DNA of 64,000 nucleotides from Thermococcus sp. JdFR-02 (lineage in GTDB: Archaea > Methanobacteriota_B > Thermococci > Thermococcales > Thermococcaceae), in the NCBI GenBank assembly GCA_002009975.1, contig MTLP01000031.1, positions 62,001-126,000 of the forward strand, written 5' to 3'. Shown one piece after another: positions 45,029-48,357 of this stretch. Under the pieces are notes generated by a model. The model searched no databases. It was not told where the DNA came from and worked only from the letters and a program-made list of their open reading frames with translations. The translations under genes and the position numbers were made by a program. Positions within the stretch are counted from its first letter, which is position 1; each line of letters starts with the position of its first letter.

Positions 45029-45298
45029 TTAACCCCTTGACTTTTCGCTAATTATTCTTTGAGCAACCTTTCCAGCTGGTGTGACTGGTAAATAAGCTCC
45101 ACCAGCAAAGACCGCACCACACTTTTGGCATTGCCATATTCCAGTGCTTATTCTCTTAACAGCTTTTCTTCCACATACTGGACAAGTGTGCTTTTGCCTC
45201 ATCTTTTCCTCTACTGCTGCAACTCTTCTTCTAATCTTCAAACCGTATCTCGGACCAAACCTTCCAGCTGAACCAACTTTTCCTGCTTTTTTAACCAT
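45029..45298 (-). CDS. rpl37ae: Ribosomal protein L37Ae
   Basis: An 89-residue zinc-ribbon ribosomal protein. It opens with [16 protein letters not shown], and the zinc site is CPVCG near residue 37 plus CQKCG near residue 56. GAGGTGATG precedes the ATG at 45298. It has its own TATA box at 45340-45355, so the L37Ae-RpoP-Brix-Pcc1 part can be transcribed apart from the exosome genes. Confidence 0.96.
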
Positions 45299-45339
45299 GA
45301 GCATCACCTCTAATAATCTTTAAGCTGATGAGTATAGCG

Positions 45340-45409: not shown

Positions 45410-45946
45410 CTAAATGCTCCTAATTTCTCTGTGGGAGATTTTCCATGTTAAGACTACAAAAGCTTCTCCAACTAAGAGACATAATCTCATACTCCACGGA
45501 CCCCATGACTGATTGTAAATTGCACACTCCCAACCAGCGATCCAAAGAGCTGGAAAAAGAAAACCCATTAGGCGAATTGTCCATCTCTCTAATTTCGTGA
45601 CTTTAGGAAGTGCTTTCTTTTCATGGAAAGCTATGAATGCAAAGATTAAAGCCAATATCAGAAAAAATCTCCCCGTAGCCATTAATGCTGGAATAAAGAC
45701 CAAAAATAGCACAAATCCAATGACTACAACACCAAGAAGTGTCTTTTTATAATCAATGTCAGTCAAAAGCTCAACTAATCCAAGAATAATAATAGATAAT
45801 AGTAACGCAGGTATGAAAGTTCCCAGGTAGTCAGAAAATGATATGCAAGCACCAGGAGCAAAAAAAGTTAGTCTAAGTAACCAAAAAAGAAAAATAATGA
45901 GGGAATTAAGGAGCAACTTCTTTTTCTCTGGAGATACCTGAATCAT
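45410..45946 (-). CDS. Multispanning membrane protein of unknown function (cassette gene 3)
   Basis: 178 residues with five or six hydrophobic helices (about residues 12-30, 40-62, 68-88, 90-108, 125-142, 150-167). The loops hold a few Cys and Trp. No family recognised. GGAG lies 7 bases before the ATG. It follows 45967-46377 by 20 bases on the same strand, so the two membrane genes and the secreted peptide gene upstream look like one transcription unit. Confidence 0.75.
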   Translation of the reverse strand: MIQVSPEKKKLLLNSLIIFLFWLLRLTFFAPGACISFSDYLGTFIPALLLSIIILGLVELLTDIDYKKTLLGVVVIGFVLFLVFIPALMATGRFFLILALIFAFIAFHEKKALPKVTKLERWTIRLMGFLFPALWIAGWECAIYNQSWGPWSMRLCLLVGEAFVVLTWKISHREIRSI

Positions 45947-45966
45947 ATGATGCTCCTCCCTTTATC

Positions 45967-46377
45967 TTAGACCAGATACACCCTCCTAAGCCGCATTTTT
46001 ATTGTGTAATATGCCAAGACAACCCCACTAAGCCATGAGACCAAAATAAGCCATCTATCATCTTTAGGAAGAGCAAGCCAAAAATCAAGAAAAAGTATTG
46101 AAAATAATCGGATTAGCCATTTTTCGTGAGATAAAGCCTTATCCAGCTCATTAGCTTTAGAGAAAGCGTTAGCCAATAGCTCATAAGAAAAAATCAAGAA
46201 AGTGCTAAGTACAGTGTAGCCAATTAACGCCTCATAAAAGGCTTTTGATGAGAGGTCTTTTATATGAAGATGGGGATAAAGGACTCTAAAAGCGCACAAC
46301 ACAGTAAAACCGAGTACAATCAATAGGAAGTCCTTACTTTTGATTATCCTACTGGAAGCTATATCATGATATGACAT
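45967..46377 (-). CDS. Multispanning membrane protein of unknown function (cassette gene 2)
   Basis: About 136 residues with four hydrophobic helices: DFLLIVLGFTVLCAFRVLY, ALIGYTVLSTFLIFSYELL, WLIRLFSILFLDFWLAL and WLILVSWLSGVVLAYYTI. A charged cytosolic-type loop (KANELDKALSHEK) lies between helices 2 and 3. It ends in a basic tail. GGGGGATG precedes the ATG at 46377. No homologue recognised; size and topology would suit an immunity or channel-like partner, but that is inference. Confidence 0.75.
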   Translation of the reverse strand: MSYHDIASSRIIKSKDFLLIVLGFTVLCAFRVLYPHLHIKDLSSKAFYEALIGYTVLSTFLIFSYELLANAFSKANELDKALSHEKWLIRLFSILFLDFWLALPKDDRWLILVSWLSGVVLAYYTIKMRLRRVYLV

Positions 46378-46400
46378 TGTTACATCCCCCAATTGAGAAA

Positions 46401-46580
46401 TTAGAAAACAAGATCGTTAAGCCATCCACCTTTCAGAAGCAGTTTATGATATTCATTAAATACCTTCTCAATCTCAGTTCTTGACACTTCCTTACTAGTT
46501 CCAAAGGGAAATGCCATTGCTGTTCCAGCTGTTGCTCCAACCATTAACAATCCAACCAACAGGGCAAAAAGTTTCTTCAT
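46401..46580 (-). CDS. Short secreted peptide precursor (cassette gene 1)
   Basis: 59 residues. A textbook signal peptide, MKKLFALLVGLLMVGATAG, ends with TAMA, giving predicted cleavage before FPFG. The mature peptide has 36 residues, mostly one amphipathic helix (roughly residues 30-50) with a Gly-Gly-Trp motif and a hydrophobic C-terminus; it has no Cys. The ATG at 46580 has a perfect GGAGGTGG site; an upstream in-frame start at 46622 does not. The TATA box lies at 46626-46640. Unknown function; a secreted signalling or antimicrobial peptide is one possibility. Confidence 0.75.
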   Translation of the reverse strand: MKKLFALLVGLLMVGATAGTAMAFPFGTSKEVSRTEIEKVFNEYHKLLLKGGWLNDLVF

Positions 46581-46625
46581 GTATCCACCTCCATGAAATA
46601 TTTGCATTAATAAATTGGGCATTAT

Positions 46626-46640
46626 GGCTTATAAATTTTT
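46626..46640 (-). promoter_or_regulatory. TATA box of the secreted-peptide cassette
   Basis: AAAAATTTATAAGCC on the minus strand, about 46 bases upstream of the peptide start codon, gives the cassette a promoter independent of the exosome operon. Confidence 0.55.
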
Positions 46641-46804: not shown

Positions 46805-47617
46805 CTACTCCCTCTTTCCCACAGCTTCAAGAATCTTTTCCCTAATCTCTTTAGCCCTCTTAAAGGCTACATCAACTGCATACATGACCTCTTCAAGTTT
46901 GAAACTTCCTCCCTCGCTCTTTTGCACTGCTGAAATCATTCCATTTTCGTCTGTAGTTATTGTAAGCTTCCCCTCCATCACTTGTTCTTCTTCTAAGTTT
47001 GGATCAACTACCAAGTTTCCACCAATTTTTGCAAAGCTCACTGGAATTGGTATCTTTGTCACTGGCAATGGCTCAAACTCCTCCAATAGCATAACTTCCC
47101 CTGTTTCCTCGTTATATTGAACTTTTGGCATTTTTGTGTTCAAAAGAGCCGCGATTGCACCAATTCCACATGCATCTACTAAATTTCCGTCGTGATCTAA
47201 GACGTGAACATCTATAAACACGACCCTAACGAGCTTTCCTGGAACGATAACTAGCTTTTCCAAGTCAATAGTTTGACTTTCCCTTATACCTCTGTCCACA
47301 ACTCTAGCTAGTTCAATTGACCTCTCATCCGGAGGACCTGGTTCAAAGCTTGGTGAAGCCAATGGTACAAGCTCAACGTTTGTTGTCATGACACCCATAT
47401 TAGGCAGATCTGGAAAAGGCTCTCCCAAATCTATCTTTATACCTACAAGAACTTGAGTGTTGCCAAGTTTAACCCAAGCAGAACCTTCAGCTTTCTCAAT
47501 TACCCCAACTTTTACTTCTAATGGTCTTATATCTTCCAAGTCTCTGCCGTCTATTCTCTTCCCATTCTTGAGCAATTCGAGAATGTGATCTTTCATAATT
47601 GATGCCATTACTTCCAT
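46805..47617 (-). CDS. rrp42: Exosome core subunit Rrp42
   Basis: About 270 residues of the RNase PH fold. GKRIDGRDLEDIRPLEVKVG near the start and GPPDERSIELARVVDRGIRE near residue 98 are the family blocks. Rrp42 forms the hexameric ring with Rrp41 and helps bind RNA but lacks the catalytic Asp pair. The start at 47617 is supported by GGAGGAGTG. The gene begins 3 bases after the rrp41 stop. Confidence 0.96.
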   Translation of the reverse strand: MEVMASIMKDHILELLKNGKRIDGRDLEDIRPLEVKVGVIEKAEGSAWVKLGNTQVLVGIKIDLGEPFPDLPNMGVMTTNVELVPLASPSFEPGPPDERSIELARVVDRGIRESQTIDLEKLVIVPGKLVRVVFIDVHVLDHDGNLVDACGIGAIAALLNTKMPKVQYNEETGEVMLLEEFEPLPVTKIPIPVSFAKIGGNLVVDPNLEEEQVMEGKLTITTDENGMISAVQKSEGGSFKLEEVMYAVDVAFKRAKEIREKILEAVGKRE

Positions 47618-47619
47618 TT

Positions 47620-48357
47620 TCACTCCTCCTCTATAATCTTAAGATATTTTTCTTTCAAAGCTTCTCTCTGCTTTTGATAAACTGCTTTTGCACCTTTTAT
47701 AGCTAATCTCACGGCTTCAACGAACTCCTCTTTACTTAAATAGCCATCCATTTGTAAGAGCGTTATATCATTCTTTATTGGCATTATTGCAACTGGAACA
47801 TCTGCTTCTCCATAGTTGTCTTCCTCTTTATTTAAATCCAAAACTAGCTCCCCATCGATTTTTCCTGCTGCACATGCTGCAACTAAATCCTTCATTGGAA
47901 TCCCAGCATCTGCTAAGGCTAATGAAGCAGCGGTAATTCCAGCAACTCTTGTTCCAGCATCAGCTTGTAAAACTTCTATGAAAACATCTACAGCTGTTCT
48001 CGGAAATAATTCAAGAATTAGAGCTGGTTCCAAAGCCCCTCTAATCACTTTGCTAATTTCCACACTCCTTCTATCTGGACCGGGTTTTTTACGTTCCTCA
48101 ACACTAAATGGAGCCATATTATATCTTACTCTTAAAATTGCCCTATCTGGTCTTTGCAAATGCTTTGGATGAATTTCCCTTGGACCATAGACAGCGGCTA
48201 AAACTTTATTTTTACCCCATTCTACATAAGCTGAGCCATCAGCACTTTTTAAAACACCAATTTCCATTTTTATTTTTCTAAGCTCATACTTCTTTCTACC
48301 ATCTATTCTATAGCCGTTTTCATCGATAAGCTTCAATCCCTCAGGCTTCTCCATCAT
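47620..48357 (-). CDS. rrp41: Exosome catalytic subunit Rrp41
   Basis: About 245 residues, the phosphorolytic active subunit of the archaeal exosome. RNase PH blocks are [40 protein letters not shown] near residue 95 and [20 protein letters not shown] near 133. The catalytic acidic residues lie in [15 protein letters not shown] near residue 180. GGAGAGTG precedes the ATG at 48357, inside the end of rrp4. Confidence 0.97.

What the first reader, a model, noticed from the sequence alone, without database searches (positions are those of the whole stretch)
45410..46640. Secreted 36-residue peptide plus two membrane proteins inserted in the exosome superoperon
A perfect signal peptide, a Cys-free amphipathic mature peptide and two multispanning proteins sit in one unit with its own TATA box and good ribosome sites. 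They split the otherwise conserved L37Ae and Rrp42 genes. Peptide plus membrane partners is the layout of bacteriocin/immunity or peptide-signalling loci, and none of the three is recognisable. It is the best candidate here for an undescribed system.
Basis: partly seen in the sequence, partly recalled or inferred. Interest (0 to 1): 0.65.

Follow-up and report, generated by a model that had tools for sequence, protein, structure and literature searches.

The report
Truncated secreted toxin-like gene, immunity-like partners kept
The "36-residue secreted peptide" is the front stump of a gene for a secreted protein of about 300 residues that lost its remainder by deletion, while the two downstream membrane genes stayed intact; complete copies in related hot-vent archaea look like an undescribed family of secreted toxins paired with matching membrane immunity proteins.

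Summary
The three ORFs, the signal peptide and the insertion between Rrp42 and L37Ae are real. The peptide is not an evolved small peptide. In three relatives the same signal peptide and next ~34 residues (84-89% identical) continue into a 299-322 aa secreted protein. At two of these loci it sits at the same Rrp42/L37Ae site; at the third a transposase gene also intervenes. In the window everything from codon 58 to just past the stop is missing, joined at a 3-4 bp microhomology; the last two residues are former intergenic DNA. Both membrane genes are intact. The full-length family was found in 19 of 94 Thermococcaceae and in none of 21 other genomes of the phylum; no Pfam, NCBIfam or PADLOC model matches. 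Fourteen intact members have a conserved core, a hydrophobic C-terminal tail and a small multi-TM gene next to them. Tail type follows partner family. Eight other loci, the window included, have a broken secreted gene beside an intact membrane gene; four genomes keep an orphan membrane gene; one locus shows the reverse. Best reading: a Thermococcaceae-specific polymorphic secreted, probably membrane-active toxin with membrane immunity proteins; the window is a toxin-dead relic. Function is inferred, not tested.

The parts
46401..46580 (-). Truncated remnant of the secreted ~300-aa gene (called SecA in the notes; no relation to the SecA ATPase): signal peptide plus first 34 residues of the mature protein, then VF and stop
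   Evidence: codons 1-57 84-89% identical to the N-terminus of 299-322 aa proteins of G093, G078, G081
46512..46580 (-). Signal peptide MKKLFALLVGLLMVGATAGTAMA
   Evidence: by inspection; conserved in the intact homologues
46410..46413 (-). Deletion junction (CTT/TCTT microhomology); relative to G078 about 742 bp are missing
   Evidence: the two blastn blocks abut at window 46410-46413 and lie at subject 321 and 1063
46401..46409 (-). Out-of-context codons GTT TTC TAA (VF*) from former intergenic DNA
46630..46640 (-). TATA-like element AAAAATTTATA of the original operon promoter
   Evidence: also present upstream of the intact gene in G093 and G078
45967..46377 (-). P0002, 136-aa membrane protein, four predicted TM helices; partner of the type-A secreted protein in G078, G081, G071, G048
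45410..45946 (-). P0003, 178-aa membrane protein, ~4 TM; partner of the type-B secreted protein in G093; frameshifted in G078/G081
46805..47623 (-). Rrp42 exosome subunit gene, upstream edge of the insertion site
45029..45307 (-). Ribosomal protein L37Ae gene, downstream edge of the insertion site

Best explanation
The locus is a relic of a two- or three-gene toxin/immunity-like module inserted between Rrp42 and L37Ae. In intact relatives the first gene makes a secreted protein of ~300 residues: signal peptide, N-terminal helices, beta-rich core, and a 60-90 residue hydrophobic C-terminal tail. The next gene makes a small polytopic membrane protein matched to that tail. Proposed mechanism (inferred): the protein is exported by its signal peptide, its tail inserts into or disrupts the membrane of neighbouring related archaea, and the cognate membrane protein blocks this in kin. 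In the window a deletion at a short microhomology, or an illegitimate join between a G093-like (type B) front end and the end of a type-A module, removed codon 58 onward. The original promoter, ribosome site and both membrane genes remain, so the cell probably keeps immunity to two toxin types without making either toxin. Shown: truncation, insertion, recent exchange, tail-partner pairing, repeated loss of the secreted gene. Inferred: toxicity, membrane action, immunity.
For: Truncation. Insertion and empty sites. Horizontal exchange: against G093 the remnant with promoter is 94-95% and P0003 80-94% identical, core flanks mostly 73-82%; synonymous differences pS 0.05 (remnant) and 0.25 (P0003) versus 0.75 (Rrp42) and 0.63 (L37Ae). 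Pairing: same-partner pairs have tails about as conserved as, or more than, the core (-7 to +16 points); all 15 different-partner pairs with core identity of at least 40% have less conserved tails (-6 to -42); the observed grouping is the best of 60 distinct label partitions. The partner families are mostly unrelated by profile comparison. The tail is the most hydrophobic part of the mature protein in all 15 members. Loss: secreted gene broken beside an intact membrane gene at eight loci (window, G001, G003, G006, G008, G029, G060, G089-C197), and orphan membrane genes in G039, G072, G038, G052. P0002 and P0003 are intact with pN well below pS. Stacked membrane genes in the window and on contig C6 of the same genome.
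Against: No toxicity, pore or immunity assay exists, and no sequence match to any known toxin or immunity family. The loss asymmetry is only suggestive: the secreted gene is ~2.3 times longer, and 12 versus 1 one-sided losses give about p = 0.06 under a length-weighted null (my estimate). One exception: in G078's second locus the secreted gene is intact but the partner is frameshifted in its last ~22 residues. Several disrupted copies are in draft assemblies, where frameshifts can be errors. Fold searches gave only weak generic beta-sandwich matches (query TM-score at most 0.27).
Confidence: 0.62

Rival explanations
1. The short ORF is a genuine secreted bioactive peptide (bacteriocin or signal), neofunctionalised after truncation, with the membrane proteins as immunity or receptor.
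For: Signal peptide, promoter and ribosome site are intact, so a 36-residue peptide could be made and secreted.
Against: No relative has a peptide of this length; the closest ones continue into 299-322 aa. The last residues come from former intergenic DNA. G003, truncated independently, stops at a different place. Six non-synonymous against two synonymous differences from G093 (omega about 0.9), versus about 0.15 between intact genes over the same codons, fit relaxed constraint, though counts are small. The hydrophobic tail that covaries with the partner is gone.
Confidence: 0.04
2. The module is not antagonistic: the secreted protein is a surface or envelope protein and the membrane proteins are its anchors, export helpers or receptors.
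For: Beta-rich core; tail-partner pairing would also fit anchoring; no toxin domain is recognised.
Against: An anchor or helper would be useless without its client, yet membrane genes persist intact without an intact secreted gene at 12 loci and are stacked. Sporadic distribution and exchange between lineages are less expected of a housekeeping surface protein.
Confidence: 0.22
3. The module is a cell-cell recognition or signalling pair: secreted ligand plus cognate membrane receptor, polymorphic for kin discrimination.
For: Covariation of ligand tail and membrane partner; receptor-only strains could listen without sending.
Against: The partners are small (104-178 aa) with no recognisable output domain; no regulator is consistently linked in the neighbourhoods read.
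Confidence: 0.1
4. The deletion in the window is an assembly artefact and the gene is full-length in the organism.
For: The genome is a 44-contig draft; reads were not available.
Against: The join is inside a contig, needs only 3-4 bp of homology, and the missing sequence is nowhere else in the assembly. A similar out-of-frame internal deletion occurs in G003.
Confidence: 0.04

Closest known systems
TspA/TsaI of the Staphylococcus aureus type VII secretion system
   Same: Polymorphic secreted toxin whose C-terminal domain depolarises membranes; downstream polytopic membrane immunity genes in strings of non-identical copies; toxin gene fragments at the locus (PMC9484751).
   Different: No DUF443 similarity here; export by signal peptide rather than type VII; lineage-specific archaeal proteins with no sequence similarity detected.
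Orphan immunity gene arrays of the Vibrio cholerae type VI clusters
   Same: New effector-immunity modules replace old effectors, often keep the old immunity genes, and leave effector remnants (PMC5361080); compare P0002+P0003 here and the C6 array.
   Different: No contractile injection system seen; membrane partners only; here also internal deletions and frameshifts.
VARTIG modules of Thermococcales (Makarova et al. 2021)
   Same: Thermococcales-only, sporadic, exchanged; secreted lead gene with a variable C-terminus followed by small membrane genes; proposed to resemble polymorphic toxin systems (PMC8416519).
   Different: Lead protein ~300 aa rather than mostly over 500 aa, no Ig/CARDB match, no DNNxxxGG C-terminus, other sites.
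SdpC/SdpI killing factor of Bacillus subtilis
   Same: Secreted precursor with a hydrophobic toxic segment and a small multi-TM immunity protein (from general knowledge).
   Different: No SdpA/SdpB-like genes noticed and no Pfam match; processing unknown; a functional analogy only.

Membership tests
Polymorphic toxin/immunity systems (as a kind) | Conserved N-terminal part with an exchangeable C-terminal domain | tested here: met
   core 73-85% but tail 31-53% between A/B (G078 vs G093) and C/D types
Polymorphic toxin/immunity systems (as a kind) | Adjacent cognate partner gene that covaries with the C-terminal type | tested here: met
   seven partner groups, mostly unrelated, each with one tail type
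Polymorphic toxin/immunity systems (as a kind) | Orphan immunity genes and loss of the toxin gene alone | tested here: met
   one reverse case in G078; suggestive rather than significant under a length-weighted null
Polymorphic toxin/immunity systems (as a kind) | Toxicity of the tail and protection by the partner | not testable with these tools
   needs expression in a laboratory archaeon
VARTIG | Large Ig-domain protein (arCOG07710) with DNNxxxGG C-terminal motif | tested here: not met
   no Ig or CARDB match; C-termini end otherwise
TspA/TsaI | Sequence similarity of the membrane protein to a known immunity family such as DUF443 | tested here: not met
   no Pfam/NCBIfam match above cut-off
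   homologues are 299-322 aa; the short form is a deletion product
Known anti-phage defence systems (PADLOC) | Match to a PADLOC model | tested here: not met

The most novel reading that the evidence does not exclude
Thermococcaceae carry an undescribed, lineage-specific family of polymorphic secreted toxins with membrane-active C-terminal tails, each matched by a small membrane immunity protein, and they accumulate orphan immunity genes after losing toxins, as bacterial T6SS/T7SS loci do.
Probability: 0.6. Interest if true: 0.65.

Novelty: new variant of a known kind. Interest (0 to 1): 0.5.

Why it matters
Inter-archaeal antagonism is poorly characterised, and in the papers searched I found no tested secreted protein toxin of Thermococcales. 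This family offers small, paired, swappable genes, with natural tail swaps and natural strains that lost the secreted gene but kept the partner. That makes toxicity and specificity directly testable in the genetically tractable, harmless Thermococcus kodakarensis. It also warns that a convincing 'secreted peptide' ORF can be a deletion stump.

Tried and rejected
Pfam, NCBIfam and PADLOC scans of the three proteins, the full-length relatives and (Pfam) the partners: nothing above cut-off. Fold search of the full-length model against PDB and viral models: hits to adhesins and beta-barrel pore-formers with query TM-score at most 0.27 and large rmsd, not used as evidence. PDB sequence search: no relative. 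Plasmid and viral collections and the named GTDB contigs: no relative; near relatives may be hidden there, so organism names stayed unknown. tRNA or repeats as an integration target at the site: none convincing. A strict rule 'no intact secreted gene without intact partner' was dropped after finding one exception. The test for relaxed selection on the stump rests on 8 substitutions and is not decisive.

Full report
WHAT IS THERE. The ORFs are as described: 46401-46580 (-) with a signal peptide, 45967-46377 (-) and 45410-45946 (-), both membrane proteins. Profile libraries recognise none of the three.

THE PEPTIDE IS A STUMP. Searching the 94 genomes with the 59-aa ORF gave three strong hits besides itself, G093, G078 and G081, in which the matching 57 residues open a frame of 309-338 codons. 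In G093 and G078 that gene follows Rrp42 directly, at the window's own site; in G081 a transposase-like gene lies between. DNA alignment shows two blocks: window 46606 to 46410 matches the first 57 codons and their leader, and window 46413 onward matches G078 about 742 bp further on, 13 bp beyond the stop codon. The blocks overlap by 3-4 bases (CTT/TCTT). The final VF and stop are therefore intergenic in origin. The missing part occurs nowhere else in the assembly.

AN INSERTION, RECENTLY EXCHANGED. In 11 relatives Rrp42 and L37Ae are adjacent. Against G093, core flanks of the window are mostly 73-82% identical in DNA while the promoter plus stump is 94-95% and P0003 80-94%. Synonymous differences are 0.05 for the stump, 0.25 for P0003, but 0.63-0.75 for L37Ae and Rrp42. 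The element has thus moved between lineages, probably by recombination in its flanks (inference). The 3' end of Rrp42 is a favoured place: in G071 and G048, where L37Ae lies elsewhere, the intact pair sits convergent to Rrp42, and G039, G072 and G038 keep only the P0002 homologue there.

THE INTACT FAMILY. A profile of 11 members found the family in 19 of 94 genomes of the family and in none of the 21 other genomes of the phylum. The protein has a signal peptide, N-terminal helices, a beta-rich core ending near a conserved HTYGN, and a 60-90 residue tail that is the most hydrophobic part of the mature protein in 15 of 15 members. A small membrane gene lies next to each. Seven tail types go with seven partner groups: A (G078, G081, G071, G048) with P0002-like; B (G093) with P0003-like; C (own genome contig C6, G064); D (G078 second locus, G008); E (G071 second, G072); F (G032, G048 second); G (G071 third, G063). 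Partners of C and D are distant homologues, A and B marginal, the rest unrelated by profile. Types C and D have cores 81-85% identical but tails 52-53% identical and different partners; the two C members, of different genera, have 86% cores and 98% tails. The observed grouping is the best of 60 distinct partitions (6 of 360 label orders, all the same grouping).

LOSS PATTERN. The secreted gene is damaged beside an intact membrane gene in the window, G003 (internal out-of-frame deletion), G006 (only the tail end left), G001, G060, G029, G089-C197 and G008 (frameshift in the signal peptide). Orphan partners occur in G039, G072, G038 and G052. One locus, the second of G078, shows an intact secreted gene with a partner frameshifted near its end. 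In G078 and G081 the P0002 partner of their type-A protein is intact and the extra P0003 has decayed. Allowing for gene length the asymmetry is suggestive, not significant.

READING. The window seems to have had a type-A module (P0002) next to an older P0003, with a front end now nearly identical to type-B G093; the secreted gene was then cut, or was cut in the act of joining the two. Both membrane genes are intact with pN far below pS, and the operon promoter and ribosome sites survive, so they can still be expressed. The simplest account is orphan immunity to two toxin types, as in TspA/TsaI strings and Vibrio T6SS arrays. Membrane action rests on the hydrophobic tail and the membrane partners only. 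Membership in any named family was not met. Known Thermococcales VARTIG modules resemble it in style but not in sequence.

LIMITS. No expression or activity data; no second strain of the species; unnamed and partly draft genomes; TM counts by hydropathy and one low-confidence model.

Noticed in passing
L116:4356-7817 (G000:C6, same genome as the window): Intact type-C secreted gene followed by three membrane genes (133, 114, 142 aa) of types found as partners of types C, D and a further C-like variant elsewhere, preceded by another secreted 315-aa protein: an apparent immunity array.
   Followed up: partly
L117:5066-6579 and L118:4383-6083 (G000 C3 and C10): Two further loci of the same genome with a secreted 341-378 aa protein sharing promoter/signal-peptide similarity with the stump, each followed by a 163-179 aa membrane-anchored protein; unrelated bodies, no Pfam match for the secreted ones.
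   Followed up: partly
L106:6264-7556 (G090) and L107:569-1541 (G079): Other, unrelated genes occupy the same Rrp42/L37Ae gap in these relatives, so the gap is a general insertion hotspot.
   Followed up: no
L115:4623-5419 (G081): A split transposase-like gene pair sits between Rrp42 and the intact secreted gene, absent from the otherwise near-identical G078 locus.
   Followed up: no
L108:4140-5327 (G071): Secreted 395-aa protein with a similar signal peptide lies near L37Ae in a genome where L37Ae is not in the exosome operon.
   Followed up: no
L149:299-2061 (G071): Third family member of this genome, with two different membrane genes behind it (173 and 140 aa).
   Followed up: partly
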